Positions 14,039-59,640 of a stretch of 64,000 nt of DNA are shown piece after piece. The DNA comes from Staphylococcus sp. MI 10-1553 (lineage in GTDB: Bacteria; Bacillota; Bacilli; Staphylococcales; Staphylococcaceae). Each line of letters begins with the position of its first letter. Within the stretch, counting starts at the first letter, position 1. The stretch is taken from assembly GCF_010365305.1 (NCBI RefSeq), contig NZ_CP048279.1, positions 372,001-436,000 of the forward strand, in the 5' to 3' direction. A program made the translations under genes and the position numbers. Under the pieces are notes generated by a model. That model saw only the letters and a list, made by a program, of their open reading frames with translations, was not told where the DNA came from and searched no databases.

Positions 14039-14239
14039 ACAGGTTGCGTGTTGATTCCCACAAATATGATTTTTTCAAATTTTTGCAATTTGCAAGAAAA
14101 TTCGGATTTGTGTATTGACATCGCTAGGAATGTTAGATAGACTTGTTGTATCATTAAAAGCCAATAAAACACCCGCACGGTTATTGCATTGGCCGTTCTA
14201 TTTGCGCGATACATCTTGCATTTTAACAATTGAATCATA

Positions 14240-14380
14240 CTTATCAAGATTGGTGGAGGGACAGGCCCTTTGAAACCAGGCAACCTATTCAGTTAGGTGC
14301 TAATTCCTGCAGGTGATTTTACCTGAGAGATAAGTCTTCTAGTAAAAGTCTATCTTTATCAGGTAGGCTTTTATTTTTTT
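14240..14380 (+). promoter_or_regulatory. SAM-I riboswitch (S-box) before metY, transcriptional type
   Basis: The aptamer spans 14240-14334: P1 arms CTTATC and GATAAG, the core GGTGGAGGGACAGGCCC, AAACCAGGCAACC and GGTGCTAATTCC. It is followed by a full terminator, AAAAGTCTATC (14344-14354) with GGTAGGCTTTT (14362-14372), and a T run. The 3' P1 arm GATAAG can instead pair with TTTATC (14355-14360) in the terminator loop, giving the usual antiterminator. SAM binding would stop transcription. Confidence 0.93.
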
Positions 14381-14400: not shown

Positions 14401-15678
14401 ATGACAAGTGATTTTAAATTTGAAACGTTGCAATTGCACTCAGGACAAGAAGTCGACGAAAGTAGCCATTCACGTGCTTTACCGATTTACCAAACGACAT
14501 CTTTTACTTTTGATGATACGGCACATGCGGCGAATTTATTCGGCTTAGATGAACTTGGAAATATTTATACACGTCTGATGAATCCTACGACGAACGTTCT
14601 TGAAACACGTGTGGCTGAACTTGAAGGGGGTGTCGCTGGTGTAGCGGTTGCTTCAGGTATGGCAGCTATCACGTATGCGATTCAAGCTGTCGCGCAGAAG
14701 GGTGATCATATCGTAGCAAGTTCTACATTATATGGCGGGACACATACACTTTTCACACATACGTTACCGAAATATGGGATTGATGTCACATTAGTAGATA
14801 CGAAAGAAGTCAGTCATATAAAAAATGCGCTTCAAGACAATACGAAGGCATTATTTGTAGAAACCATTGGGAATCCAGAAGGCAATATTGAGGATTTCGA
14901 TGCACTTGTAGCAATTACAAAAGCACAAGGTATACCACTTATTGTTGATAATACATTCGCGACGCCTTATCTTTTTCGTCCGATTGAATATGGGGCGAAC
15001 ATTGTTGTTCACTCTGCGACCAAATTTATTGGTGGGCACGGAACTTCAATGGGTGGTGTCATTGTTGATGCAGGTAACTTTAATTGGGATAATGGCAAGT
15101 TTCCAGGATTAAGTGAACCCGATCCGTCTTATCACGGTTTAGTGTTCAGTGAAAAATTTGGAGAAGCCGCACTTGCTTTTAAAATTCGTACAACAATTTT
15201 AAGAGATACAGGAGCAGCGATCTCACCGTTCAATGCATTTTTACTAACGCAAGGCTTAGAGACGCTTTCATTACGGTTAGAACGTCATGTGGAAAATGCT
15301 GAAAAAGTTGCACAATATCTTGAAAAGCATGACAAAGTCGCATGGGTTAAATATGCTGGCTTACCGACGAGTGAATATTACGACTTGAAAGAGAAGTATT
15401 TACCAAAAGGCGCAAGTTCCATCTTTACCTTTGGTGTCAAAGGTGGATACGAAGCCGGCAAAAAATTTATTGAAGGCTTAGAATTATTTTCTTTATTAGC
15501 GAATGTAGGAGACGCAAAGTCACTTGTTATTCATCCCGCATCCACGACGCATCAACAATTGACGGAATCAGAACAAACAGCAGCAGGTATTGCCCCTGAG
15601 ACGATTCGTCTTTCGATCGGCCTTGAGCATATCGATGATATTATTGCGGATTTGGAAAAAGGCTTTGCCAAAATTTAA
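14401..15678 (+). CDS. metY: O-acetylhomoserine sulfhydrylase (aminocarboxypropyltransferase)
   Basis: A 425-aa PLP enzyme of the Cys/Met metabolism family. It makes homocysteine (or methionine with methanethiol) from O-acetylhomoserine and sulfide. Visible motifs are SGMAAITYA (phosphate-cup region), TIGNPEG, IVDNTFATPYL and the PLP lysine in VVHSATKFIGGHGT. The length of about 425 aa with the longer insert GLSEPDPSYHGLVF fits MetY rather than the shorter MetB/MetC type. AGGGGGA precedes the ATG. The SAM riboswitch in its leader agrees with a role in methionine synthesis. Confidence 0.92.
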   Translation: MTSDFKFETLQLHSGQEVDESSHSRALPIYQTTSFTFDDTAHAANLFGLDELGNIYTRLMNPTTNVLETRVAELEGGVAGVAVASGMAAITYAIQAVAQKGDHIVASSTLYGGTHTLFTHTLPKYGIDVTLVDTKEVSHIKNALQDNTKALFVETIGNPEGNIEDFDALVAITKAQGIPLIVDNTFATPYLFRPIEYGANIVVHSATKFIGGHGTSMGGVIVDAGNFNWDNGKFPGLSEPDPSYHGLVFSEKFGEAALAFKIRTTILRDTGAAISPFNAFLLTQGLETLSLRLERHVENAEKVAQYLEKHDKVAWVKYAGLPTSEYYDLKEKYLPKGASSIFTFGVKGGYEAGKKFIEGLELFSLLANVGDAKSLVIHPASTTHQQLTESEQTAAGIAPETIRLSIGLEHIDDIIADLEKGFAKI

Positions 15679-15843
15679 CTTGTAAGCGTCACACAAAATG
15701 AAAATAAAGGGAAATTCATGATCCGATAGATTGAAATGAACGCTTTTAAATCGTAAAACATCATATGAAAAATGTAGTTGTTCTATCGGTCATTGTTTTA
15801 CCTTTCATTAATTAAAAAACACCCCATGAATGTACATCATCGT

Positions 15844-15980
15844 CTTATCAAGAGAGATGGAGGGACTGGCCCGATGAAATCTCGGCAACAGGAATTAATT
15901 CACTGTGCCAATTCCAGTAGCGCAATTGCTAGAAGATAAGTCAACTTTCACTATGCCTTATCTTCCTATTTTTTAGGAGG
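15844..15980 (+). promoter_or_regulatory. SAM-I riboswitch with a ribosome-binding-site-hiding expression platform
   Basis: The aptamer is at 15844-15940: P1 arms CTTATC and GATAAG, ATGGAGGGACTGGCCCGATGAA, CGGCAACAGG and GTGCCAATTCC. Between it and the gene there is no separate terminator. Two exclusive hairpins are possible. GAAGATAAG (15932-15940) with CTTATCTTC (15957-15965) uses the 3' P1 arm. CTTCCTA (15962-15968) with TAGGAGG (15974-15980) buries the ribosome binding site. With SAM, P1 forms and frees the second hairpin to close; without SAM the first forms and the site opens. The aptamer is certain, the mechanism is inference. Confidence 0.9.
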
Positions 15981-15988
15981 TAATGTTC

Positions 15989-17368
15989 ATGACACGAAAA
16001 CAAATTCATTTTAACGGATTCGTCCAAAATTCTCCCTCTCCGCATGCTTCAGGTTTATGGAAACACCCAAAAGATAAAGGAGCGACACACCACAATTTAA
16101 AATATTGGACGGATATTGCTCAAACTTTAGAGCGTGGTTTATTTGATGGTATTTTTATTGCTGATGTGTTGGGGACTTATAGTGTTTACAACCAGTCCCA
16201 TGACGCCGCAGTGAAACATGCCGTTCAACTCCCCGCACACGATCCTATTCCGCTCGTTTCTGCCATTGCAGCGGTAACTGAGCATATTGGTATTGCACCT
16301 ACTGTCTCTACTACCTATGCACAGCCATATAAATTGGCACGTCAATTATCTACACTCGATCATCTGACCAATGGCCGATTAGGTTGGAATGTTGTAACGT
16401 CTTATTTAGAAAGCGAGGCAGTGAACTTAGGCTTAAAAGAGCGCTTGCCTAAAGCGTTGCGTTACAACCGTGCAGACGAATTTTTGCAAGTGAGCTATCA
16501 GTTGTGGGAAGACAGTTGGGAAGACGATGCGGTTGTTAAAGCACGTGAGATAGACACGTATGCTGATCCTTCTAAAGTTCATGCGATTCATCATAAAGGT
16601 ACATTTTTCGATATACCCGGACCGCATCTTGTAGAGCCTTCTCCTCAAAGAACGCCTGTCTTATTTCAAGCAGGTGCCTCCGAAAAAGGCAAAACATTTG
16701 CTGCAAAGCATGCAGAGGCTGTGTTTACAAAACATACCTCTATTGAATCGTTGCGAGCGTATGTCACAGACATTCGGACAAGGGCACAACAATTTGGCCG
16801 TAATGGAGAAGATATACTTGTTTTTCCAATGGTTTTACCTATTATCGGTGAAACTGAAGCAGAGGCTTATGAAAAATATGAAGCGCTTCAAAATGAAGTC
16901 AGCTATGAAGGTTCAGTCGCATTGTTAAGTGGACATACGGGTATTGATTTTTCTCAATATGATCCAGATGAATATATCGAAAATATCGAGACAGAAGCGA
17001 TGCAAGGCAATCTCAATTTATATACAAAAGACCCACATCGAAAATGGACATTGCGAGAAGCGGTGAAAAACCACGGGCTAGGTAATGGAACGGCTAAATT
17101 CATCGGCACACCCAAAAAAATTGCTGATCAATTGGAATTGTGGGCGAATGAAGGCGGTGCGGACGGTTTTAATATTGCACAAGCCTATTCTCCAGGTACA
17201 TTTGAAGAATTTGTCGACTTAATCATTCCTGAATTACAAAAAAGAGGCATATATCGTACAGAATATGAAGGTGAAACTTTACGTGAAAATATGTTTGGCA
17301 AAGGCCATACGAAAGTGAAACCGACACATCCCGCACGAAATAAAAAAGCCAATTTAGTACAGATATAG
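15989..17368 (+). CDS. FMN-dependent luciferase-like monooxygenase (NtaA/SnaA/SoxA family)
   Basis: A 459-aa bacterial-luciferase-fold monooxygenase. Typical segments are GLFDGIFIADVLG near the N terminus, STTYAQPYKLARQLSTLDHLTNGRLGWNVV-type core pieces around residues 105-135, and GTPKKIADQLELW near the C terminus. This subfamily uses reduced FMN from a partner reductase to attack C-N or C-S bonds (nitrilotriacetate, dibenzothiophene sulfone and similar compounds). The ATG at 15989 is 8 bases after AGGAGG; the ATG at 15983 is too close. SAM-riboswitch control points to use of an organic sulfur source. The substrate is unknown. Confidence 0.85.
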   Translation: MTRKQIHFNGFVQNSPSPHASGLWKHPKDKGATHHNLKYWTDIAQTLERGLFDGIFIADVLGTYSVYNQSHDAAVKHAVQLPAHDPIPLVSAIAAVTEHIGIAPTVSTTYAQPYKLARQLSTLDHLTNGRLGWNVVTSYLESEAVNLGLKERLPKALRYNRADEFLQVSYQLWEDSWEDDAVVKAREIDTYADPSKVHAIHHKGTFFDIPGPHLVEPSPQRTPVLFQAGASEKGKTFAAKHAEAVFTKHTSIESLRAYVTDIRTRAQQFGRNGEDILVFPMVLPIIGETEAEAYEKYEALQNEVSYEGSVALLSGHTGIDFSQYDPDEYIENIETEAMQGNLNLYTKDPHRKWTLREAVKNHGLGNGTAKFIGTPKKIADQLELWANEGGADGFNIAQAYSPGTFEEFVDLIIPELQKRGIYRTEYEGETLRENMFGKGHTKVKPTHPARNKKANLVQI

Positions 17369-17378
17369 GGGGATGATT

Positions 17379-18875
17379 ATGAATGATGTTAAAGTGTATA
17401 CATGGATAGGCTTTATTGTCTTTATGGTGCTTATGATTACGGTAGGCTTTGTCAGTTCTAGAAGGATGAACAGTATTTCAGATTTTGCGACTGGCTTTGG
17501 AAGGATTGGACCACGCACGCTAGGGTTGTCTTTTGCGGCGACGTATTTAAGTGCTGCAACCTTTCTAGGTTATCCGGGATGGTCGTATGCGTGGGGGCTT
17601 AATAATTTATGGTTGTTTTTAGCGATGTTTATCGGTGGTCCTACAGGTGTTTTAATGGTCGCTAAAAGAGTCAGATCATTAAACACAACACAGCAATCCC
17701 TCTCACTACCAGATTGGTTGGGCGATTTTTATGACAGTCCTATATTACGTGTTGGGACGGCTTTGATCTTATTATTTAATATTTTCTATATCGCAAGTCA
17801 GCTTGTCGCAGGCGCTTTAATTTTCAAACATTTACTCGGTATGAGTTACTTTTCAAGTTTAATTGTTATCACAGTCATTGTTGTGCTTTATGTTTACGTA
17901 GGTGGTGCACTTGCAGATATTTATACAGACGCGATACAAGTGATTATTATGGCAGTAGCTGGAATTGTCATTTTTATCTCTGGCATTGTGCTGTTTTGGA
18001 AGGGGAGTATCCATGATACGTTTTCGGGTATTGCGCAAAACTTAAACCATCAAAATCATCACTTAGTCCAAGTTTTTAATCCTGAATCCGTTCACTTTCA
18101 TTCTTTTACAATGATTATCGGTGCGATTATTATTCAATGGGCTTTTGCGTCAGCACCGCACTTATTTAATAAAATTTTAGGTTTAAAAAGTGAAAAAGAT
18201 TTAGGCCGCATGATTCGAACTTATATTTTTGTGATGTCACTCTGTTTACTTGTTCTTTTTGGCGGTATTTATAGCCGCGTAGCAATAGGTGGACAAGTCG
18301 CAAGTTCAGATTTAGCCTTACTACAATATATAGAATGGGCGTTTCCTGCTGCCATTGTTGCTTTATTCGGTGTCGTTATATTGGCAGCGGCTATGTCAAC
18401 GACAGATGGTTTGTTTGTGTCTATTTCTACAGTGTTTGCGAATGATTTATTTTTAAAACTGATTGTCAAACAAAAGTGGGTGGATGTTGAAGAACAGAAA
18501 GCCAATCGAATTGCTTTTCGTATTAGTCGTGTTTCTGTACCGATTGTAGGGCTTTTATCGTTTTTATTAGTTTTGAAGCCACCGCTTTATATGAGTGACC
18601 TCATGTGGATTGGGATTTCGGGTATTGCAGCCGGTACAATGGGCCCTATTTTGCACGCGGTATATGCGAAACGAAAAGCACCCGCCCGTGCAGCAGAACT
18701 TTCGATGGTTGTTGGTTTAGTGTCTTATCTTGTCATTTATTTTGGCGGTGTGATTCCAAGTACAATGTCTGCCGGTGCTGTTGCGACTGTTTTTGGCATA
18801 CTGACCATTACCGTGACTTCTTATGTCATGCATCATCGAGCACGCCAACTCTCTGTAGATAAGGGGGAAGCATAA
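17379..18875 (+). CDS. SSS-family sodium:solute symporter
   Basis: A 498-aa permease with about 13 hydrophobic helices. SSS features include FAATYLSAATFLGYPGW in helices 2-3, VGGALADIYTDAIQ and the late AMSTTDGLFVSISTVFANDL segment. The start at 17379 has AGGGGGA 7 bases upstream, directly after the monooxygenase stop. The next ORF overlaps its stop by one base. Its place between the monooxygenase and the small genes suggests it brings in the substrate of that enzyme. It is unlike the other SSS protein in the window (33644), which belongs to inositol use. Confidence 0.88.
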   Translation: MNDVKVYTWIGFIVFMVLMITVGFVSSRRMNSISDFATGFGRIGPRTLGLSFAATYLSAATFLGYPGWSYAWGLNNLWLFLAMFIGGPTGVLMVAKRVRSLNTTQQSLSLPDWLGDFYDSPILRVGTALILLFNIFYIASQLVAGALIFKHLLGMSYFSSLIVITVIVVLYVYVGGALADIYTDAIQVIIMAVAGIVIFISGIVLFWKGSIHDTFSGIAQNLNHQNHHLVQVFNPESVHFHSFTMIIGAIIIQWAFASAPHLFNKILGLKSEKDLGRMIRTYIFVMSLCLLVLFGGIYSRVAIGGQVASSDLALLQYIEWAFPAAIVALFGVVILAAAMSTTDGLFVSISTVFANDLFLKLIVKQKWVDVEEQKANRIAFRISRVSVPIVGLLSFLLVLKPPLYMSDLMWIGISGIAAGTMGPILHAVYAKRKAPARAAELSMVVGLVSYLVIYFGGVIPSTMSAGAVATVFGILTITVTSYVMHHRARQLSVDKGEA

Positions 18876-19003
18876 TGTTTGTAAATGAAATGTTATCCAT
18901 CTGGATTTATGGTTTTATAGGAACATTTGTTGGACTACTTCTTGCATTAAAATGGGGTTACTCAAATCATGATGAAAAGGAGAATGATAATGCCAATCAT
19001 TAA
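18875..19003 (+). CDS. Small membrane protein, possible symporter accessory subunit
   Basis: A 42-aa ORF not usually called because of its size. Its ATG overlaps the symporter stop (TAATG), GGGGGA lies 8 bases upstream, and its end overlaps the tautomerase start by 14 bases. One transmembrane helix is evident (about residues 8-30, IYGFIGTFVGLLLALKW), followed by a charged His/Asp/Glu/Asn tail. Small single-helix proteins coded just after SSS symporters are known as accessory subunits, which fits by position and topology. Sequence alone does not prove it. Confidence 0.7.
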   Translation: MFVNEMLSIWIYGFIGTFVGLLLALKWGYSNHDEKENDNANH

Positions 19004-19379
19004 AATTGACCTGATTAAAGGGAAAGACGAAGCTTATATTAAGGAAGTTTTAGATATCTCATATGAAGTGATGCTAGAAGCCTTTCATGCGCCGGTGGGG
19101 GATCGCTATCAAATTGTGACACAACACGAAGCGTATGAGATGCAAATTTTAGATACAGGTTTAGGCGTAGAGCGGACGACGGATGTATTAGTTTTTACGC
19201 TTATCTCGCGTCCAAGAACGGAAGAACAAAAAACGATTTTTTATCGCAAATTGGTAGAAAGATTACATCAAAAATTAGGGATTCGAAAAGAAGATGTACT
19301 GATTAGCCTTGTAGAAAATACTGATGCGAATTGGAGCTTTTTCAATGGGGAGGCGCAATTCTTGAATGGAGACTTATAA
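18990..19379 (+). CDS. Tautomerase-family protein
   Basis: A 129-aa protein whose start MPIIKIDLIKG leaves Pro at position 2, the N-terminal catalytic proline of the 4-oxalocrotonate tautomerase fold after Met removal. At 129 residues it resembles the longer tautomerase_2 subgroup (QIVTQHEAYEM, SLVENTDANWSF). Earlier in-frame ATGs at 18969 and 18984 would block this proline, so the ATG at 18990 with AAGGAG about 6 bases before it is chosen. It lies within the SAM-controlled operon and may process the product of the monooxygenase. Confidence 0.85.
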   Translation: MPIIKIDLIKGKDEAYIKEVLDISYEVMLEAFHAPVGDRYQIVTQHEAYEMQILDTGLGVERTTDVLVFTLISRPRTEEQKTIFYRKLVERLHQKLGIRKEDVLISLVENTDANWSFFNGEAQFLNGDL

Positions 19380-19380
19380 T

Positions 19381-19563
19381 ATGACAACAAAAATATCACC
19401 TGAAATCTCTCTGCTCTCTTTAGCTGTATTGATTGAGAAAAGAGCGGAGTGGGAAGCATATAAACCGGTCAATACTGCAGCTTATATGATTAAGCAAGAA
19501 AAATTAGCAGCCTACAACCAAGCGATCGCTAAATGCCAACAAACACATCCAGACAACACATAG
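19381..19563 (+). CDS. Uncharacterised 60-aa protein, last gene of the SAM-controlled operon
   Basis: A 60-residue soluble, helical-looking protein (LLSLAVLIEKRAEWEAYK, then a Lys/Ala/Gln-rich half). It starts 1 base after the tautomerase stop with ATGGAGA about 9 bases upstream, so it is clearly part of the operon. A second ATG at 19366 is in frame but overlaps the ribosome binding site. No family was recognised. A terminator follows 6 bases after the stop. Confidence 0.65.
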   Translation: MTTKISPEISLLSLAVLIEKRAEWEAYKPVNTAAYMIKQEKLAAYNQAIAKCQQTHPDNT

Positions 19564-19568
19564 CGATG

Positions 19569-19614
19569 AACGGTAAAATCTGGTGATTAGAAAAAGATTT
19601 TACCGTTCTTTTTT
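19569..19614 (+). terminator. Terminator of the SAM-controlled operon
   Basis: AACGGTAAAATC (19569-19580) pairs with GATTTTACCGTT (19596-19607) and is followed by CTTTTTTG. Confidence 0.85.
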
Positions 19615-26493: not shown

Positions 26494-27948
26494 ATGGCTG
26501 AACTTTTAAAAAATTATATTGGTGGCAAATGGGTTGAATCAAAATCCGAAGAAAAGATTGAAGTTTTGAATCCTGCAACAAAAGAAGTGATTGCATATGT
26601 ACCGGTTTCAACGAGAGAAGAACTCGATGAAGCAGCAAAAATAGCACAAGAAGCTTTCTTAAAATGGAAAGAGGTAGCTGTACCTAAGAGAGCACGTATC
26701 TTATTTAAGTTTCAACAGCTACTTATGGAAAATAAAGAAACATTAGCGAATATTATCACCAAAGAAAATGGTAAAAATACGCAAGAAGCACTTGGTGAAG
26801 TACAACGTGGAATTGAAAACGTTGAATTTGCATGTGCTGCACCAACATTAATGATGGGTGACTCTTTATCAAGCATTGCTACAAATATTGAAGGAACAAG
26901 CTATAAATACCCAGTAGGTGTTGTAGGAGGTATTACACCGTTCAACTTCCCAATGATGGTTCCTTGTTGGATGTTCCCAATGGCTATCGCATTAGGTAAT
27001 TCATTTATTATTAAACCTTCTGAGCGCACACCATTATTAGTCAACAAACTCGTGGAATTATTAGAAGAAGCAGGCTTACCAGCAGGTGTATTTAATGTTG
27101 TACATGGCACAGTAGAAGTTGTGAATGGCATATGTGAAAACGAAAATATTAAGGCCATCTCATTTGTTGGATCAAAAACTGTCGGTGAAATTGTATATAA
27201 AAAAGGAACTGCAAACTTAAAAAGAGTGCAGTGCTTAACTGGAGCTAAAAACCATACGATTGTTTTAGATGATGCAGATATCGATACCGCGGTTAAAGAT
27301 GTCATTGGTGCAGCTTTTGGTTCTGCGGGTGAAAGATGTATGGCAGCGGCGGTAGTTGCAGTACAAGAAGGCGTTTATGACACATTTAAAGAAAAGCTTG
27401 TACAAGCAGCCAAAGATATCGTTATTGGTAATGGTATTGAAGATAATGTCTTTTTAGGTCCTGTTATTAGAGAAGAAAATAAAGTAAGAACGTTGAAATA
27501 TGTAGATATCGGTGTTGAAGAAGGTGCCACACTTGTATTAGATGGTCGAGAAAATAACAACGAAGAAGGCTATTTTGTTAAGCCTACTATTTTTGAAAAT
27601 ATCACGACTGATATGACAATTTGGAAAGATGAAATATTTGCTCCAGTACTTTCATTAGTAAAAGTTAAATCACTTAAAGAAGGTATTCAATTAGCAAACC
27701 AATCTGAATTTGCTAACGGCGCATGTTTATTTACGGATAGTGCTTCTTCAATCAGATACTTTAGAGAAAATATTGACGCTGGAATGTTAGGAATTAATCT
27801 AGGTGTACCTGCACCTATGGCAATTTTCCCGTTCTCTGGTTGGAAATCTTCATTCTTTGGATCGCTCCACTGTAATGGTAAAGATAGTGTTGAATTCTAC
27901 ACACATCGAAAGGTTGTTACAGCACGCCAAGGTGAACCAAGATTTTAA
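26494..27948 (+). CDS. iolA: Methylmalonate-semialdehyde dehydrogenase (CoA-acylating)
   Basis: A 484-aa aldehyde dehydrogenase. The NAD-binding segment [10 protein letters not shown] and the catalytic Cys in [11 protein letters not shown] are visible, and [15 protein letters not shown] is characteristic of the IolA/MmsA subgroup. It turns malonate semialdehyde, the last inositol intermediate, into acetyl-CoA and CO2. It is the first gene of the iol operon, with AGGAGG upstream and iolB 13 bases downstream. Confidence 0.94.
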
Positions 27949-27961
27949 AGGAGGCACGTCA

Positions 27962-28774
27962 ATGTCTTATTTACTCAAAAAGGCTAGACATTCAGAGCAT
28001 GAAATATCATTTGTCCATCAACATCAAATGAGTGATTTGGATCTAGATTATATTGGATTTGAAGTACTTGATCTTGTAAAAGGGTCGGAACATGTTTTTG
28101 AGACGAAACAACTTGAAGTCTGTGTCGTTGTTCACACAGGTAAAGTGAATATTAAAGTAGATAATCAAGATTTCGAAAGCTTAGGACGTAGAAAAACAGC
28201 TTTTGATAGAGTGCCAACTGATAGTGTTTATGCATCAAAAGAACGGACTCTATCAGTAACGGCTATAGATGATGCAACAATCATATTATGTTATTCAAAA
28301 TGTAGTGTGCAAAGACCGACGCAATTAATTAAAGCAGAAGATAATACGGTAGAAGATCGTGGTAAATATGCAAATCAAAGACATGTACACAACATATTGC
28401 CTGATTCTCATGAAGCGAGTGAAAATCTATTAGTTGTTGAAGTGTATACAAATCAAGGAAACTGGTCGAGCTATCCTCCACATAAACACGATGTTGATAA
28501 TTTACCAAATGAATCTCTTCTAGAAGAGGTTTACTATCATGAAATGAACCCTCAGCAAGGTTTTGTGTTCCAACGTGTTTATACCGATGATAGAAGTATT
28601 GACGAAACAATGACCGTTGAAAATCGAGATGTCGTAGTTGTTCCTAAAGGTTATCATCCTGTAGGTGTGCCTGATGGATATGATAGTTATTACTTAAACG
28701 TAATGGCTGGTCCTCAGAAAATTTGGAAGTTTAATAATGCAAAAGAACATGAATGGATCATTGATAGAGATTAG
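27962..28774 (+). CDS. iolB: 5-deoxy-glucuronate isomerase
   Basis: A 270-aa cupin protein. The metal-binding cupin motif is WSSYPPHKHDVDN with later HPVGVPDGYDSYYLNVMAGP. It converts 5-deoxy-glucuronate to 2-deoxy-5-keto-gluconate. A longer in-frame reading begins inside iolA, but the ATG at 27962 has AGGAGG just upstream and gives the family length of about 270. Confidence 0.93.
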   Translation: MSYLLKKARHSEHEISFVHQHQMSDLDLDYIGFEVLDLVKGSEHVFETKQLEVCVVVHTGKVNIKVDNQDFESLGRRKTAFDRVPTDSVYASKERTLSVTAIDDATIILCYSKCSVQRPTQLIKAEDNTVEDRGKYANQRHVHNILPDSHEASENLLVVEVYTNQGNWSSYPPHKHDVDNLPNESLLEEVYYHEMNPQQGFVFQRVYTDDRSIDETMTVENRDVVVVPKGYHPVGVPDGYDSYYLNVMAGPQKIWKFNNAKEHEWIIDRD

Positions 28775-28786
28775 GAGGAAAGTAGC

Positions 28787-29749
28787 ATGAGCGAAAAAAA
28801 GCATATTGTTGCGATAGGTCGAGCGGCCATTGATCTCAATTCTGTTGAAATCAATAGACCAATGGAAGAAACGAAAACCTTTAGCAAGTATGTAGGAGGT
28901 TCTCCAACAAATATTGTGATAGGCGCATCAAAATTAGGACTTAATGTGGGTTTGATTGCTAACGTGTCGGATGATCAACATGGGCGTTTTATTACTCATT
29001 ATTTACAAGAAGTTGGCGTAGATACGTCACAAATTTCTATTGATAAAAATGGGCATAAATCTGGATTAACATTTACTGAAATTCTGAGTCCTGAAGAATC
29101 TAATATTTTGATGTATAGAGAAAATGTAGCAGATCTTAACTTGAAACCTGAAAATGTTGATGAGAATTACATTAAGAATAGTCAATATTTATTGATTTCT
29201 GGTGTTGCGTTATCACAATCTCCTTCACGTGAAGCTGTGATCAAAGCATTGCTTATTGCTAAAAAACATCAAGTAAAGACCATTTTTGAGTTGGATTATA
29301 GACCATACTCATGGAGAAATGAAGAAGAAACATCACTTTATTATGAATTGTTAGTTCAGCAAGTGGATATCGTGATTGGTACTAGAGATGAATTTAACAA
29401 AATACTGTCGTTCCAATCATTATCAGATGTTGAAATCAGCGAGAGGATTTTTAAGAATGGCAACGCAGAGTTAGTTGTAATTAAACATGGTGTGCAAGGT
29501 TCTAATGCTTATACAAGTACGGGCGACTTTTACACTGGTAAAGCGTATAAAGCTAATGTTCTTAAGACTTTCGGAGCAGGAGATTCATATGCAGCGGCAT
29601 TTTTATATGGATTAATTAAAACACAGAATATCCAAACGGCTTTACAATATGGTGCGGCGTCTGCAGCAATTGTGGTGAGTAGTCACAGTTCAAGTGAAGC
29701 GATGCCTACAATTGAGAAAATAGAAGCGCTCATTCAAGAGCAAAGTTAG
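28787..29749 (+). CDS. iolC: 5-dehydro-2-deoxygluconokinase
   Basis: A 320-aa PfkB-family sugar kinase. The N-terminal signature YVGGSPTNIVIGASKLG and the C-terminal ATP site with the catalytic Asp in KTFGAGDSYAAAFLYG are both present. It phosphorylates 2-deoxy-5-keto-gluconate. AGGAGG precedes the ATG; iolD follows 10 bases after the stop. Confidence 0.94.
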   Translation: MSEKKHIVAIGRAAIDLNSVEINRPMEETKTFSKYVGGSPTNIVIGASKLGLNVGLIANVSDDQHGRFITHYLQEVGVDTSQISIDKNGHKSGLTFTEILSPEESNILMYRENVADLNLKPENVDENYIKNSQYLLISGVALSQSPSREAVIKALLIAKKHQVKTIFELDYRPYSWRNEEETSLYYELLVQQVDIVIGTRDEFNKILSFQSLSDVEISERIFKNGNAELVVIKHGVQGSNAYTSTGDFYTGKAYKANVLKTFGAGDSYAAAFLYGLIKTQNIQTALQYGAASAAIVVSSHSSSEAMPTIEKIEALIQEQS

Positions 29750-29759
29750 GAGTGTTAAG

Positions 29760-31673
29760 ATGTCGAACACAATTCAACTAACAACAGGTGAAGCAATCGC
29801 TAAATTTTTAACACAGCAATATATATCAGTCGATGGTCATGAATCTCGATTTGTAGAAGGCGTTATCAACATTTTTGGTCATGGGAATGTATTAGGACTT
29901 GGTGAAGCATTGTATCAATATCAAGACAAGTTGAATATGATACAGGGGAAAAATGAACAGGGAATGGCCCATATTGCGACGGCATTTAGCAAACAAAAGT
30001 TAAGAAGAAAAATTTATGCTGTCACAACTTCTGTTGGTCCAGGTTCAGCTAATTTAGTGACTGCTGCAGGAACGGCATTAGCGAATCATATTCCCGTACT
30101 ATTTTTACCTGGAGATACTTTTGCTACAAGACAACCAGATCCTGTACTTCAACAAATAGAACAATCTTATAGTATCGGTGTCACAACTAATGATGCATTG
30201 AAGCCTGTATCAAGGTACTTTGATCGCATTACACGTCCAGAACAAATTATGAGCGCACTTCTAAGAGCTTTTGAAGTCATGACGAATCCCGCTACTGCTG
30301 GTCCAGTTACAATTGCGTTAAGTCAAGATGTTCAAGGAGAATCGTATGCATTTCCAGTTTCGTTTTTCAAAAAAAGAGTACATTATATAGATCGTTTAAA
30401 GCCTAGCAAACGCTCGGTTGAAAAAGCGATTGAGCTGATTAATCATGCTAAAAAACCTTTATTCGTCGTTGGAGGAGGAGCAAAGTACTCTGAAGCGCAG
30501 AAAATTATTAAACAGTTAAGCGAAAACCATCATATCGGAATTGTTGAAACACAAGCCGGTAAGTCCACAGTTGAAGCGAATTTTAAATTTAACTTAGGTG
30601 GCGTTGGTGTTACTGGCAATTTGGCAGCAAATGAATATGCTAAGGATGCCGATGTTGTCATAGGTGTAGGTACAAGATATTCAGATTTTACTACAGGTTC
30701 AAAAACAGCTTTTAATTTTGAAAATGCATCGTTTATCAATATAAACGTCAATCGTAGTGATGCGCTGAAATTAGATGGCGTAGATGTTTTAGGTGATGCT
30801 AAATGTGCACTAGAAGAGATCGTCGAGGGATTAACAAGGACATCTCGGCAAAATGCTAATGAAATTGAAATGCTGAAAGAAAAGTGGCAAGAAGAGCGTC
30901 GTCGTTTGGCAGAAGTTGATATCAATCATGACACATATCGACCTGAAATAGAAGATGATTTTGAAGAAGAAAAATTTCAAAAGTATGTATCTCAGCTCAA
31001 TACACAACTTCCACAAACAAACGCACTCATCCATTTAAATCATTTAATTGAAGAAGATGCCATTATTGTTGCAGCTGCCGGCTCACTCCCTGGTGATTTG
31101 GAAAGATTGTGGGAATCTCAGAAGTTTAATACTTATCACATGGAGTATGGCTATTCGACTATGGGATATGAAATTGCTGGGGCATTAGGTGCTAAATTAG
31201 CTGAACCAGAGAAAGAAGTTTATGCATTTGTTGGAGATGGTAGCTTTTTAATGCTACATTCAGAGCTTGTAACCGCATTACAATATCATCAAAAAATAAA
31301 TGTGGTGTTATTTGATAATAGTGGCTTTGGCTGTATTAATAATTTACAAATGGGGAACGGCGGTCATAGCTTCTGTACTGAATTCTCGATGCCCAATGGT
31401 GATGTTCTAAATGTGGATTATCAAAAAGTGGCAGAAGGATATGGTGCAAAAGGTTATAAAGTGAATCATTTAAATACACTAGAAAAAGCAATAAAAGAGG
31501 CAACATTACAAAAAAATAGTACGTTATTTGAAATTAAAACGTTGCCTAAGACGATGACTAAAGGTTATCAATCATTCTGGAATGTTGGCGTTTCAGAAGT
31601 GAGCGAAAATCCAAAAATTCTTAAGGCATTTGAAGAAAAGAAACAAAAAATGATGAAAGCTAAGAAATATTGA
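29760..31673 (+). CDS. iolD: 3D-trihydroxycyclohexane-1,2-dione hydrolase
   Basis: A 637-aa thiamine-diphosphate enzyme. It has the three ThDP domains: the N-terminal pyrimidine-binding part with the catalytic Glu in GKNEQGMAHIA, the central domain (VVGGGAKYSE), and the C-terminal part with the metal motif GDGSFLMLHSELVTA ending in NSGFG. It opens the inositol-derived ring to give 5-deoxy-glucuronate. Length is as usual for IolD. Confidence 0.95.
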   Translation: MSNTIQLTTGEAIAKFLTQQYISVDGHESRFVEGVINIFGHGNVLGLGEALYQYQDKLNMIQGKNEQGMAHIATAFSKQKLRRKIYAVTTSVGPGSANLVTAAGTALANHIPVLFLPGDTFATRQPDPVLQQIEQSYSIGVTTNDALKPVSRYFDRITRPEQIMSALLRAFEVMTNPATAGPVTIALSQDVQGESYAFPVSFFKKRVHYIDRLKPSKRSVEKAIELINHAKKPLFVVGGGAKYSEAQKIIKQLSENHHIGIVETQAGKSTVEANFKFNLGGVGVTGNLAANEYAKDADVVIGVGTRYSDFTTGSKTAFNFENASFININVNRSDALKLDGVDVLGDAKCALEEIVEGLTRTSRQNANEIEMLKEKWQEERRRLAEVDINHDTYRPEIEDDFEEEKFQKYVSQLNTQLPQTNALIHLNHLIEEDAIIVAAAGSLPGDLERLWESQKFNTYHMEYGYSTMGYEIAGALGAKLAEPEKEVYAFVGDGSFLMLHSELVTALQYHQKINVVLFDNSGFGCINNLQMGNGGHSFCTEFSMPNGDVLNVDYQKVAEGYGAKGYKVNHLNTLEKAIKEATLQKNSTLFEIKTLPKTMTKGYQSFWNVGVSEVSENPKILKAFEEKKQKMMKAKKY

Positions 31674-31686
31674 CGGAGGCTACGAT

Positions 31687-32706
31687 ATGACAGCTATTAA
31701 AATTGGACAGGTTGGTTTGGGCAGATTAGGAAAAGTACATGCTCAAAACGTTGTGAATCATATCCCTAATGCTGAATTATGGGCTGTAGCTTCAATTGTA
31801 CAAGAGGAATTGGATTTTGCACGAAATGTTCTTGGGGTAAGGCATTGCTATGATTCTTACACAGACATGATTAATAATGACGAGTTGGATGCGGTCATTA
31901 TTGTTTCACCAAGTGGATTTCATACGGTGCAAATTACCCAAGCATTAGATAAAGGATTACATGTATTTTCTGAAAAACCAATTGGACTAGAAATGAGAAG
32001 TATTGAAAGTGTCGTTCAAAAGATTGAAGAAAAGCAAAATTTAGTATTTCAATTAGGATTTATGAGAAGGTTTGATGCATCTTATCAATATGCCAAAGCA
32101 TTGATTGAAAGAGGAGAGTTAGGAGAGTTAACTTCTATTAGATGTTATGGAATTGATCCTCATTCTGGCCTCGAGTCCTTTATTTCATTTGCTAGTAACG
32201 CAGCAAGTGGTGGTATTTTCCTTGATATGTCTATTCATGATATTGACTTAATTCGATGGTTTTCTAATTCAGAGTTCAAATCTGTATATGCATTAGGAAA
32301 TAATATTGCTGCGCCTAAATTATCAGAGTATTCAGAACTTGAAACAGGTGCATGCTTAGCCGAGTTGGAAAATGAAGTCATTGTTTATCTGTTAGCAGGC
32401 AGGAATGCAATGCACGGTTATCATGTTGAGACTGAATTAATCGGTACAAAAGGAATGTTAAGAATTGGTAATGCACCAGAAAAAAATCTCGTCACACTTT
32501 ATGACAGTAATGGTGTCGTACGACCTACTTCTCATCATTTTCCTGAACGCTTTAGAGAAGCATTTATTAATGAGATTCAAACATTTGTAGATGCCATTAT
32601 AGGTAATAAAAATTCTGTGGTTACAGGAATAGATGGCTTGAAAAGTACCGAAGTAGCCATTGCAATGCAAAAATCATTTGATGAGAAGAAAGTAATCTAT
32701 CTATGA
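31687..32706 (+). CDS. iolG: Inositol 2-dehydrogenase
   Basis: A 339-aa Gfo/Idh/MocA oxidoreductase. It has the NAD fold GQVGLGRLGKVHAQN, the conserved SEKPIGLE lysine, the GFMRRFD segment and MSIHDIDLIRW with the catalytic His/Asp pair. It oxidises myo-inositol to scyllo-inosose. GGAGG lies upstream. A second member of the family is coded at 35249, so which one acts on which inositol isomer is open. Confidence 0.85.
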   Translation: MTAIKIGQVGLGRLGKVHAQNVVNHIPNAELWAVASIVQEELDFARNVLGVRHCYDSYTDMINNDELDAVIIVSPSGFHTVQITQALDKGLHVFSEKPIGLEMRSIESVVQKIEEKQNLVFQLGFMRRFDASYQYAKALIERGELGELTSIRCYGIDPHSGLESFISFASNAASGGIFLDMSIHDIDLIRWFSNSEFKSVYALGNNIAAPKLSEYSELETGACLAELENEVIVYLLAGRNAMHGYHVETELIGTKGMLRIGNAPEKNLVTLYDSNGVVRPTSHHFPERFREAFINEIQTFVDAIIGNKNSVVTGIDGLKSTEVAIAMQKSFDEKKVIYL

Positions 32707-32716
32707 GGTGAGGAAA

Positions 32717-33598
32717 GTGACACAATTTATTAAATATGCATGTGCACCGATTGCATGGACAAATGATGACTTGCCAGAGTTGGGAAAAGAAAATTCATTT
32801 GAACAATGTATTAGCGAAATGGCACTAATTGGATATGAAGGAACAGAAATTGGCAATAAATATCCTAAAGATGCAGAGGTGTTAAAGGCTTACTTGGAAC
32901 CTAGAAATTTATCGGTAGCAAGTGCATGGTTGAGTTTATATTTAACTACAAAACCTTATGAAGAAACAGAAAAATCCTTTATTGATCATATGAACTTTTT
33001 AAAAGCATTAGGTGCAAAAGTGATTGTTGTTTCGGAGCAAGGTAAAAGTATTCAAGGCGATATCACATGTCCACTGTTTAAGTTTAAGCCTACGTTCAAC
33101 GATGAAGAATGGAATAAACTCGTTGATGGCTTACATCGATTGGGTTCTATTGCTAGAGATAATGGTATGAAAATTGTTTATCACCATCATATGGGAACAG
33201 GTGTACAAACTACAGAAGAAATAAAGAGACTCATGGACGCAACGGATCCAAAACTTGTTTCTTTATTATATGACACAGGACATTTACATTTTTCTGGTGA
33301 AGATATTGTGGACATCTTTAATTTATATATGGATAGAATTCATCATATACATTTTAAAGACATACGTGGCACTATCGTTGAACATGTGAAAAAAGAGAAT
33401 TTGTCGTTTTTAGAAGCGGTGAAACAAGGTGCATTTACAGTTCCAGGAGACGGTGATATTGATTTTAAACCAATTTTGGAAATGATTTATGAGTCGGACT
33501 ATTCTGGATGGATTGTAGTAGAAGCGGAACAAGATCCTGCAGTTGCTAACCCATTCTTATATGCGAAAAAAGCGAAAGAGTATATTAATGCGATATAA
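32717..33598 (+). CDS. iolE: Inosose dehydratase
   Basis: A 293-aa xylose-isomerase-like TIM barrel. It has the family start with APIAWTNDDLPELG, the metal ligands in YHHHMGTGVQT, LLYDTGHLHFSG and HHIHFKDIR, and a final Glu in VVEAEQDP. It dehydrates scyllo-inosose. The likely start is GTG at 32717 with GAGGTG 6 bases upstream; another GTG at 32708 is in frame but overlaps this site. Confidence 0.92.
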   Translation: MTQFIKYACAPIAWTNDDLPELGKENSFEQCISEMALIGYEGTEIGNKYPKDAEVLKAYLEPRNLSVASAWLSLYLTTKPYEETEKSFIDHMNFLKALGAKVIVVSEQGKSIQGDITCPLFKFKPTFNDEEWNKLVDGLHRLGSIARDNGMKIVYHHHMGTGVQTTEEIKRLMDATDPKLVSLLYDTGHLHFSGEDIVDIFNLYMDRIHHIHFKDIRGTIVEHVKKENLSFLEAVKQGAFTVPGDGDIDFKPILEMIYESDYSGWIVVEAEQDPAVANPFLYAKKAKEYINAI

Positions 33599-33643
33599 AA
33601 ATTGAATATTTAGGGAGCTGTATGCTTCTAAGGGGTGGAAAAT

Positions 33644-35248
33644 ATGGGTTTATTTTCAATTGTTTCTTTTGTTTTAGTGATTTGTTTAGTTGGATTTTAT
33701 GCCTTTATTAGAAGTAGAAAAATTGACACTAAGAATACTGATGGTTTCTTCATGGGTGGAAGAAGTTTAACTGCATTTACGATTGCTTCCACGATCATCA
33801 TGACAAATCTATCTACTGAGCAAATTGTTGGTCAGAACGGTCAAAGTTTTACGGCTGGGATGGAAGTAATGGCTTGGGAAGTTACATCAGCAATAGCTAT
33901 CGTTATTTTAGCATGGGTATTTTTACCTAAGTATTTCAGATATGGGATTGATACGATATCTGATTTTGTTGAATTACGTTACGATTCTTTTACTAAAAAA
34001 TTAGTGTCAATGTTATTTATATTCACATATGTCGTTTCATTTTTACCTGTAGTGCTTTATTCAGGAGCGCTCGTATTTAATAAAATTTTTAACGTGAGTG
34101 GCATTTTGAATGTAAGTAACACTACAGCAGTTATTTTAATTTCTACAATTATAGGTGTAGTTGGTATTATTTACTTATTTATTGGTGGTCTATCACTAAG
34201 TGCACATAGTGATTCCATTTATGGTGTCGGTTTGCTCGTTGGTGGTCTTTCAATACCAATTTTAGGACTTATTATATTCGGGGATGGTAGCTTTTTACAA
34301 GGTTTTGATAAAGTCGTTCAAAATACACCTGAAAAATTAAACTCAATTGGTGCTATTGATTCAAAAATTGTTCCTTGGCCTACATTATTCTTTGGTATGT
34401 TCTTTAACAACTTATTCTTCTGGTGTACAAACCAAATGATTGTTCAAAAAGCACTAGCCGGCCAAAGTCTTAAAGAAGCACAAAAAGGTGCAATGTATGT
34501 CGGTATGTTCAAAATTTTTGGCGCATTATTCTTAGTTTTTCCAGGTATTCTCGCTTTCAATATGTTAGGCAGTCAAGTCGATAATCCTGATAATGCATAT
34601 CCAATGTTAGTGAATGAAGTTTTACCTGAATGGGCATATGGATTATTTGGAGCGGTTATCTTTGGAGCGATATTAAGTTCATTTGTCGGATCGTTAAACA
34701 GCACAGCGACTTTATTCTCATTAGACTTTTATAAATCAGTGATCAATAAAGAAGCATCTAATGAAAAAGTATCGAGAGTTGGCCGTATTATGACTGTTGT
34801 AGTTGGGATTATTGTTGTTATTCTTGCACCAATGATTTCTCTTTTCCCTCAAGGATTATATGCAGTTGTACAGGAATTTAACGGTGTTTATAACATGCCG
34901 TTGTTAGTGTTAATTTTAGTCGGCTTTTTTGCTAAACGTACATCACATCAAGGTGCAAAAGTGATGTTTATTTTTCACATTGTAATGTATGCGCTTTCTA
35001 AAGTGTTGTTGACTGACATCCATTTCTTATATGTATTAAGTGTGTTATTCTTTATCGATTTATTGATTTTATTAATCTTTAACAAAATTAAACCTTCAAA
35101 TGCATTTGACTTTGACGCCAATTACGCAAAAGTTGATATTACCCCTTGGAAACATCGCTATGTCGTTGGCATCATTATTATCATTATTGTAATCGTGACA
35201 TATACAATCTTTTCACCACTTGTATTAGCTGGAATAGGAGGAAACTAA
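33644..35248 (+). CDS. SSS-family sodium symporter, probable inositol transporter
   Basis: A 534-aa permease of the SLC5/SSS family with about 14 helices. Visible features are FFMGGRSLTAFTIASTIIMTNLSTEQIVGQNGQ near the start (shown here as family text spanning about residues 35-68) and GAILSSFVGSLNSTATLFSLDFYK later. The ATG at 33644 follows AGGGGTGG. It is inside the iol operon, between iolE and a second dehydrogenase, so it is the likely inositol importer in place of the MFS transporter IolT of Bacillus. It resembles the SGLT branch rather than the symporter at 17379. Confidence 0.83.
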   Translation: MGLFSIVSFVLVICLVGFYAFIRSRKIDTKNTDGFFMGGRSLTAFTIASTIIMTNLSTEQIVGQNGQSFTAGMEVMAWEVTSAIAIVILAWVFLPKYFRYGIDTISDFVELRYDSFTKKLVSMLFIFTYVVSFLPVVLYSGALVFNKIFNVSGILNVSNTTAVILISTIIGVVGIIYLFIGGLSLSAHSDSIYGVGLLVGGLSIPILGLIIFGDGSFLQGFDKVVQNTPEKLNSIGAIDSKIVPWPTLFFGMFFNNLFFWCTNQMIVQKALAGQSLKEAQKGAMYVGMFKIFGALFLVFPGILAFNMLGSQVDNPDNAYPMLVNEVLPEWAYGLFGAVIFGAILSSFVGSLNSTATLFSLDFYKSVINKEASNEKVSRVGRIMTVVVGIIVVILAPMISLFPQGLYAVVQEFNGVYNMPLLVLILVGFFAKRTSHQGAKVMFIFHIVMYALSKVLLTDIHFLYVLSVLFFIDLLILLIFNKIKPSNAFDFDANYAKVDITPWKHRYVVGIIIIIIVIVTYTIFSPLVLAGIGGN

Positions 35249-59489: not shown

Positions 59490-59514
59490 ACTGTTGTAAA
59501 ACTTAAATATGGAA

Positions 59515-59603
59515 TTTGCTAGGGGTGCCATTAATGCGCTGAAAGAGGTTAACGCCTCAACCCTTTGAACCTGATCTAGATCATACTAGCGTAGGGAAGC
59601 AAA
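59515..59603 (+). promoter_or_regulatory. TPP riboswitch (THI box) before thiC
   Basis: P1 arms TTTGCT and AGCAAA enclose AGGGGTGCC, GCTGAAAGAGG, CCCTTTGAACCTGATCTAGATCATACTAGCG-type core text and GTAGGGA, all standard for the TPP aptamer. Thiamine pyrophosphate would repress thiC. Confidence 0.95.
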
Positions 59604-59640
59604 CGAAACCTTCATGACTGACTTGTGTTCATTTGTAAGG

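What the first reader, a model, noticed from the sequence alone, without database searches (positions are those of the whole stretch)
15989..19563. SAM-controlled five-gene operon: candidate undescribed organosulfur uptake and cleavage system
Seen: flavin monooxygenase (NtaA/SnaA/SoxA type), SSS symporter, 42-aa membrane peptide, tautomerase and 60-aa protein, tightly packed with overlaps, one riboswitch in front and one terminator behind. Known: this monooxygenase family breaks C-S or C-N bonds, and S-box control marks methionine/sulfur genes. Inference: the symporter imports a sulfur compound, the monooxygenase releases sulfite or a thiol, the tautomerase handles the carbon product, and MetY upstream uses the sulfur. 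The FMN reductase is missing and must be elsewhere.
Basis: inference. Interest (0 to 1): 0.75.

Follow-up and report, generated by a model that had tools for sequence, protein, structure and literature searches.

The report
SAM-switched organosulfur scavenging operon
Some staphylococci and salt-loving relatives carry a set of genes, switched off by SAM, that probably imports a small sulfur-containing acid, cuts off its sulfur for making methionine and disposes of the leftover carbon acid, by a route for which no description was found.

Summary
In detail: a SAM riboswitch, an NtaA/DmoA-type flavin monooxygenase (LLM), an SSS symporter, a 42-aa membrane peptide, a "tautomerase" and a 60-aa protein form one tight operon next to S-box metY. 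The sulfur reading is supported and can be sharpened. The "tautomerase" is a malonate semialdehyde decarboxylase (MSAD) homologue: best solved relative MSAD, all eight recalled MSAD residues, and 4 of 12 other staphylococcal copies lie in inositol-type clusters, which make malonate semialdehyde. In two other lineages the same LLM-symporter-peptide set is followed by a malonate semialdehyde dehydrogenase instead. The LLM subfamily has an invariant Lys-Asn pair at pocket positions where BdsA/DszA has valines, which suits a carboxylate. Best reading: R-S-CH2CH2-COO- (first choice 3-methylthiopropionate, then DMSP) is cleaved at C3-S; the thiol goes to MetY, malonate semialdehyde to acetaldehyde and CO2. 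Against it: ten Salinicoccus-type genomes have the core but neither disposal enzyme was found, and two staphylococcal sublineages lack the riboswitch. The substrate is inferred, not shown. The leader looks translational here, transcriptional in Salinicoccus. The peptide is an unnamed symporter-linked family.

The parts
14238..14336 (+). SAM riboswitch aptamer before metY, followed by a terminator-like hairpin at 14341-14375
   Evidence: RF00162 83.7 bits; terminator scan
14401..15678 (+). metY, O-acetylhomoserine sulfhydrylase homologue; ends 164 nt before the operon's aptamer
   Evidence: TIGR01326 676.8 bits, cut-off 495.1
15842..15942 (+). SAM riboswitch aptamer (S-box) of the operon
   Evidence: RF00162 89.7 bits
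15932..15980 (+). expression platform: GAAGATAAG/CTTATCTTC anti-sequester stem, exclusive with P1, and CTTCCTA/TAGGAGG hairpin over the Shine-Dalgarno site
   Evidence: sequence, folds -37.2 (ON) and -38.4 (OFF) kcal/mol, kept in 4 of 4 leaders of this group looked at
15989..17368 (+). NtaA/DmoA-family FMN-dependent monooxygenase (LLM); pocket residues K250, H318, N368 in the 461-aa numbering that starts at 15983
   Evidence: TIGR03860; nearest solved chains LadA 3b9n and DmoA 6ak1; pocket mapping
17373..18875 (+). SSS-family sodium:solute symporter
   Evidence: PF00474; nearest solved chains are sodium/iodide and other SLC5-type transporters, weak
18875..19003 (+). 42-aa membrane peptide with conserved MFVNEMLSIWLYG start; read as a symporter subunit
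   Evidence: found after the symporter in 26 of 26 core loci (window; weakest L117, E 0.004); no Pfam or NCBIfam match
18990..19379 (+). malonate semialdehyde decarboxylase homologue (tautomerase superfamily)
   Evidence: 2aag E 1.6e-37; residues
19381..19563 (+). 60-aa protein of unknown function, schleiferi/intermedius group only
   Evidence: no family match; seen in L031, L032, L064 and duplicates
19568..19608 (+). intrinsic terminator hairpin, 14 pairs
   Evidence: fold -18.9 kcal/mol

Best explanation
A SAM-repressed scavenging pathway for a small 3-thio-propionate (R-S-CH2-CH2-COO-), most likely 3-methylthiopropionate (MMPA). The SSS symporter with its 42-aa partner imports it. The LLM, fed FMNH2 by a reductase encoded elsewhere, oxygenates C3 next to sulfur, and the product falls apart into a thiol (methanethiol) and malonate semialdehyde. 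MSAD turns malonate semialdehyde into acetaldehyde and CO2. MetY, under its own S-box next door, couples the thiol to O-acetylhomoserine, giving methionine directly. With plentiful SAM the aptamer forms and the Shine-Dalgarno site is hidden. Shown by sequence: gene set, aptamer, family memberships, MSAD residues, pocket signature, recurrence with malonate semialdehyde enzymes. Inferred: substrate, reaction, import, fate of the thiol, direction of the switch.
For: S-box before 21 of 26 LLM+SSS+peptide loci. MSAD in the operon in 9 of 9 Staphylococcus loci with the SSS; CoA-acylating malonate semialdehyde dehydrogenase directly behind the set in L038 and L104 (621 and 584 bits, cut-off 448.5). 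MSAD is in 13 of 13 same-genus genomes with an LLM of at least 60% identity and 6 of 71 others (Fisher p 4e-11, not corrected for kinship). MSAD copies directly behind an inositol-type aldolase in L097 and L101. K250/N368 pocket pair (BdsA residues from passages of PMC5819316). metY and metX under S-boxes in the same genome. O-acetylhomoserine sulfhydrylase makes methionine from methanethiol in R. rubrum (passages of PMC4958253). The DmdBCD route of marine bacteria ends in the same products, with malonyl semialdehyde as intermediate (passages of PMC3660561).
Against: 15 of 26 core loci have neither MSAD nor the dehydrogenase adjacent; in ten Salinicoccus-type genomes no dehydrogenase match at E 1e-130 and no MSAD (nothing rang there, though the same query matched 19 of 84 genomes). 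The five SSS loci L067-L071 and the four BCCT loci have no S-box over cut-off. 8 of 12 MSAD copies outside the operon are not in recognised inositol clusters. Most MSAD-subgroup proteins are uncharacterised (PMC5818174). The genome also has metICFE, so MetY is not the only route, and direct methanethiol capture is a minority route in Ruegeria (PMC7157515). The pocket argument rests on alignment to a distant enzyme.
Confidence: 0.5

Rival explanations
1. The substrate is DMSP itself. The LLM cleaves the C3-S+ bond, releasing dimethyl sulfide and malonate semialdehyde; the gain is carbon or osmolyte turnover, or methyl groups, more than sulfur.
For: In four staphylococcal genomes the orthologous LLM follows a BCCT-type (betaine/carnitine/choline) transporter instead of the SSS, and these LLMs nest inside the staphylococcal SSS/MSAD group; MSAD is elsewhere in those 4 of 4 genomes. 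Many relatives are from salt-loving genera.
Against: Dimethyl sulfide is no MetY substrate (established knowledge), and the window's genome has one LLM of this family, so no second LLM would use it. A SAM switch fits sulfur supply better. The BCCT loci have no S-box, so their substrate may differ.
Confidence: 0.17
2. The substrate is another 3-carbon sulfur acid (3-mercaptopropionate, 3-sulfinopropionate, 3-sulfopropionate or an S-carboxyethyl thioether); sulfide, sulfite or another thiol is released with malonate semialdehyde.
For: Same malonate semialdehyde and pocket evidence; MetY homologues can also take sulfide (established knowledge).
Against: The LLM is nearest to thioether and alkane enzymes, with only distant matches to alkanesulfonate monooxygenases.
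Confidence: 0.13
3. MSAD does not process the LLM's product. It detoxifies malonate semialdehyde from other sources, or has another reaction, and the LLM splits a different thioether such as dimethyl sulfide.
For: The window has an inositol cluster 7 kb downstream. Ten Salinicoccus-type genomes have the core but neither enzyme was found. DmoA is a close solved relative. BLAST places 8 of 12 other MSAD copies outside recognised inositol clusters.
Against: MSAD sits inside the SAM-controlled operon, and in two other lineages an unrelated malonate semialdehyde enzyme takes its place. DmoA lacks the Lys, Asn and His of the pocket.
Confidence: 0.15
4. The operon works on a nitrogen compound (for instance an N-substituted beta-alanine), giving an amine and malonate semialdehyde.
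For: The family includes nitrilotriacetate and EDTA monooxygenases. CodY-like boxes (recalled consensus, at most 2 mismatches) lie upstream in L034, L035, L067-L071, L073, L075, L074 and L076 of 29 upstream stretches scanned.
Against: S-box in 21 of 26 loci, metY neighbour. CodY also controls methionine genes in S. aureus (passages of PMC3771891).
Confidence: 0.05

Closest known systems
DmoA dimethyl sulfide monooxygenase (6ak1) and LadA alkane monooxygenase (3b9n)
   Same: NtaA/DmoA family, about 45% identical chains by eye of the alignment (E 1.5e-137 and 4.5e-141); two-component flavin chemistry presumed
   Different: Pocket: K250, H318, N368 here; Leu, Trp, Gly in DmoA; Gly, Gly, gap in LadA. 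Symporter, MSAD and SAM riboswitch have no part in those systems as far as recalled
DszA/BdsA dibenzothiophene sulfone monooxygenase (5tlc)
   Same: Keeps F12, H20 (His or Tyr), F56, F246 and H316 of the seven BdsA substrate residues (PMC5819316 passages)
   Different: V248 and V372 are Lys and Asn here; no aromatic desulfurisation genes in the operon
DmdBCD route from 3-methylmercaptopropionate
   Same: Proposed net products methanethiol, acetaldehyde, CO2, through malonyl semialdehyde (passages of PMC3660561)
   Different: CoA-dependent there, proposed flavin- and oxygen-dependent here; none of the operon's genes belongs to the Dmd families
MSAD of Pseudomonas pavonaceae (2aag) and coryneform FG41 (3mjz)
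   Same: Full-length homologue, all eight recalled residues as in 2aag
   Different: Those act after halo-acrylate hydrolysis in 1,3-dichloropropene breakdown (PMC10606566, one passage); here a SAM-controlled operon
R. rubrum MTA-isoprenoid shunt
   Same: Methanethiol made and captured by O-acetylhomoserine sulfhydrylase (passages of PMC4958253)
   Different: Methanethiol comes from 5-methylthioadenosine there, from an imported compound here (inferred)

Membership tests
SAM riboswitch, S-box (RF00162) | covariance model score over the curated threshold | tested here: met
   89.7 bits, threshold 44.4
SAM riboswitch, S-box (RF00162) | SAM binding and control of expression | not testable with these tools
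   only folding: two near-equal states; MFE gave the OFF form in 3 of 4 leaders of this group, an ON-like form in L031
NtaA/DmoA FMN-dependent monooxygenases (TIGR03860) | model score over cut-off | tested here: met
   571.2 bits, cut-off 279.7
DmoA dimethyl sulfide monooxygenase | same substrate-pocket residues as DmoA | tested here: not met
   positions 250, 318, 368 are K, H, N here and L, W, G in DmoA; so filed beside DmoA, not as DmoA
MSAD | N-terminal Pro-1 and residues D37, R73, R75, W114, F116, F123, L128 (list recalled) | tested here: met
   21 of 21 staphylococcal sequences and 2aag; 3mjz differs at 73 and 123
MSAD | decarboxylation of malonate semialdehyde | not testable with these tools
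   context only
SSS sodium:solute symporters (PF00474) | Pfam score over cut-off | tested here: met
   146.6 bits, cut-off 22.8; below every specific NCBIfam cut-off shown, so the substrate is open
DmdBCD demethiolation pathway | CoA ligase, acyl-CoA dehydrogenase and DmdD hydratase | not tested
   no such gene in the operon; the genome was not searched for them

The most novel reading that the evidence does not exclude
An oxygen- and FMNH2-dependent, CoA-free route that splits 3-methylthiopropionate (or DMSP) into a methylated sulfur product and malonate semialdehyde, feeding methionine through MetY, in animal-associated staphylococci and halophilic Bacilli: a Gram-positive, riboswitch-controlled counterpart of the marine DmdBCD pathway, with a symporter that works with an unnamed 42-aa subunit family.
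Probability: 0.4. Interest if true: 0.78.

Novelty: new variant of a known kind. Interest (0 to 1): 0.62.

Why it matters
It would add a route for scavenging methylated sulfur outside the marine Proteobacteria in which such routes are mostly studied, tie MSAD to sulfur metabolism, and mark a substrate-specific subfamily of flavin monooxygenases by a two-residue signature. Each step can be tested with two purified enzymes and one riboswitch reporter.

Tried and rejected
Long-chain alkane oxidation (LadA is the top PDB hit): rejected because of the S-box, the metY neighbour and the Lys in the pocket. Generic keto-enol tautomerase: rejected after the MSAD match and the malonate semialdehyde contexts. 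ON-switch reading of the leader (the GAAGATAAG/CTTATCTTC hairpin before a T-run, exclusive with P1, as a terminator): considered; the hairpin over the Shine-Dalgarno site and the terminator layout read by eye in Salinicoccus leaders fit an OFF switch better, but this is not proven. MetY as the only methionine route: rejected.

Counting rules. The 26 core loci are the window and L031-L038, L064, L067-L071, L104-L107, L111-L117; L065, L066 and L108-L110 are the same places as L031, L032 and L033-L035 and were counted once; L118 (symporter 47%, no LLM beside it) was dropped. S-box distances use LLM starts that I adjusted by hand in L036, L037, L038, L113 and L116. The tree and pocket alignment hold 22 of the 26 core loci (L069, L106, L111, L113 left out) plus four BCCT rows. 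CodY-box background: 37 of 580 shuffles had at most 3 mismatches; the window's best site had 5. Of 120 homologues, 6 of the 46 without K250 also have N368. Haloarchaeal relatives (about 50% identity) were seen only as gene sizes and tree rows. Structure prediction and fold search were not used.

Papers. Searches without a description of the operon: (listings). PMC3766115 (passages) says that various Bacillales genes under SAM riboswitches are unassigned, without naming these in the passages seen. PMC13352529: abstract and passages. PMC9259527: passages. Rodionov's 2004 paper on methionine regulons (recalled) was not held, so it may already list some of these loci.
Full report
The thing itself. 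The window belongs with the Staphylococcus schleiferi/coagulans/pseudintermedius group: the monooxygenase is 98% identical to that of S. coagulans DSM 6628 and 97% to S. pseudintermedius LMG 22219. A SAM riboswitch (15842-15942) is followed by a monooxygenase (15989-17368), an SSS symporter, a 42-aa membrane peptide, a tautomerase-superfamily protein and a 60-aa protein, with gaps of +4, -1, -14 and +1 nt and a terminator hairpin behind. metY, with its own S-box, ends 164 nt before the aptamer. The whole genome has six S-boxes: the two in the window, and four before genes that I read by eye as metNIQ, metX and metK and before an amidohydrolase-LdmS (Asp-Met ligase) pair. Genes read by eye as metI and metC, with PF02574 and PF01717 matches behind them, follow a T-box. 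So the S-box set of this genome joins MetX and MetY with this operon.

Conserved core. Searches of the genus (84 genomes), a named genome collection, the order (157 genomes) and the class (398 genomes drawn evenly) gave 26 distinct loci with LLM, SSS and peptide: 9 Staphylococcus, 11 of a family that includes Salinicoccus, and 6 other Bacilli. An S-box precedes the LLM in 21 of 26: about 40-201 nt away in 20, and 1.3 kb away with an AhpD-like gene between in L036. The five without are L067-L071; database proteins at about 80% identity are from S. equorum and S. nepalensis. Their upstream stretches carry CodY-like boxes (recalled consensus). The peptide goes with the symporter: no match at E 0.01 in the four loci where a BCCT-type transporter stands beside the LLM (L072, L074, L076, L077). 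It starts MFVNEMLSIWLYG or nearly so and has no Pfam or NCBIfam match. I read it as a symporter subunit.

The carbon product. The solved relatives of the tautomerase are malonate semialdehyde decarboxylases (2aag, E 1.6e-37). The residues that I recall as marking MSAD are in 21 of 21 staphylococcal sequences and in 2aag. Of 21 MSAD places in 19 of 84 same-genus genomes, 9 are in the LLM operon. Of the 12 others, L097 lies directly behind a class II aldolase, IolD, a PfkB kinase, IolB and an IolA-like gene; L101 directly behind such an aldolase and IolG; L100 near an aldolase and an IolG-like gene (below its cut-off); L103 has the gene sizes of L101, but only its TIM-barrel gene was scanned. 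The other 8 are in other contexts: L092-L094 beside an epimerase (L092 scanned), L095, L098 and L102 beside an aldehyde-dehydrogenase-like gene, L096 near a flavin-reductase-like gene, L099 unclear. Inositol breakdown releases malonate semialdehyde through the IolJ aldolase (established knowledge, no call). Independently, the LLM-SSS-peptide set is directly followed by a CoA-acylating (methyl)malonate semialdehyde dehydrogenase in Virgibacillus ndiopensis (L038) and in L104 (TIGR01722, 621 and 584 bits, cut-off 448.5). Two unrelated enzymes for one compound beside the same core are the main ground for naming malonate semialdehyde. In the genus, MSAD is in 13 of 13 genomes with an LLM of at least 60% identity and in 6 of 71 others (Fisher p 4e-11, not corrected for kinship).

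Results against. 15 of 26 core loci have neither enzyme adjacent. Three of these genomes have the dehydrogenase elsewhere (G290, G488, G439), ten Salinicoccus-type genomes have no match at E 1e-130, and two (L036, L037) were not searched. Of the 9 Staphylococcus genomes with the core, G000 and G068 have the dehydrogenase as well, G000 in the window's own inositol cluster. MSAD: 0 of 26 genomes outside the genus (no match there to show the search worked, but the same query matched 19 of 84).

The enzyme. In a tree of 41 rows the 22 SSS-linked LLM rows and the four BCCT-linked rows form one group (support 82/82); the BCCT rows nest in the staphylococcal SSS/MSAD part (100/99), which suggests a change of transporter for the same or a similar compound. 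MFS-linked paralogues (L073 and L075, with S-boxes) and SsuE-linked ones lie outside. The BdsA/DszA substrate residues F12, H20, F56, F246, V248, H316, V372 (PMC5819316, passages) map to F13, H21, F58, F248, K250, H318, N368. K250 and N368 are the same in 26 of 26 of those rows, T/T or V/I in the paralogues, Gly and a gap in LadA, Leu and Gly in DmoA. Of the 120 listed of 5226 homologues, 74 have K250 and those 74 have N368; the border lies at about 64-67% identity. A constant Lys there suits a carboxylate, as a 3-thio-propionate has; that the residue faces the substrate is inferred from alignment.

How it probably works. Import of R-S-CH2CH2-COO-, oxygenation at C3, collapse to thiol and malonate semialdehyde, then acetaldehyde and CO2; MetY captures the thiol. 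3-Methylthiopropionate comes first because methanethiol gives methionine in one step (PMC4958253) and because the genome has one LLM of this family, so dimethyl sulfide from DMSP would have no further LLM. DMSP comes second because of the BCCT change and the salt-loving hosts. The net reaction would equal that of DmdBCD without CoA. Direct methanethiol capture is a minority route in two Ruegeria species (PMC7157515 passages).

The switch. Salinicoccus leaders have, by eye, an antiterminator and a terminator (MFE shows the terminator in L033, the antiterminator in L034). In the schleiferi/intermedius group the antiterminator stem is kept but the terminator is replaced by a hairpin over the Shine-Dalgarno site, in 4 of 4 leaders looked at. 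With the window leader held in each state the energies are -38.4 (OFF) and -37.2 (ON) kcal/mol; free folding gave an OFF-like form in three leaders and an ON-like form in L031.

FMN reductase. Of two SsuE-type matches in the genome one is over cut-off (176.8 bits), at G000:C1:320956-321495. An SsuE gene stands beside the LLM paralogue in L080 and, by gene clustering, in L078, L079 and L081.

Novelty. No description was found in the held papers. The families are known; the combination, the likely compound class and the peptide family appear new. I file it as a new variant of a known kind.

Noticed in passing
26494-35248: Inositol-type cluster with an IolA/MmsA-like dehydrogenase (567.8 bits, cut-off 448.5) and genes read by eye as iolB, iolC, iolD, iolG, iolE and an SSS symporter: a second source of malonate semialdehyde in the window.
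   Followed up: partly
59511-59614: TPP riboswitch, 71 bits.
   Followed up: no
L133 (own genome, about G000:C1:2030562-2031800): An S-box before an amidohydrolase gene and LdmS, the L-aspartate-L-methionine ligase (658.5 bits, cut-off 475).
   Followed up: partly
L036 6246-6956, L115 5938-6603, L116 8386-9120: AhpD/carboxymuconolactone-decarboxylase-like double-domain protein beside the LLM operon in three of six non-Salinicoccus Bacilli loci, in L115 with an S-box of its own; role unknown.
   Followed up: partly
L073 6964-9629 and L075: A second S-box-controlled LLM, with an RbtT/DalT/CsbX-type MFS transporter (L073 scanned), in two relatives of the window genome; its pocket has Thr where the operon's LLM has Lys and Asn.
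   Followed up: partly
L105 and L106, near their left ends; S-boxes also in L034, L035, L111, L113: Na+/H+-antiporter-like (PF03553) genes behind S-boxes a few kb from the LLM operon in Salinicoccus-type genomes (two proteins scanned; S-boxes); perhaps sulfur-compound or methionine transporters.
   Followed up: partly
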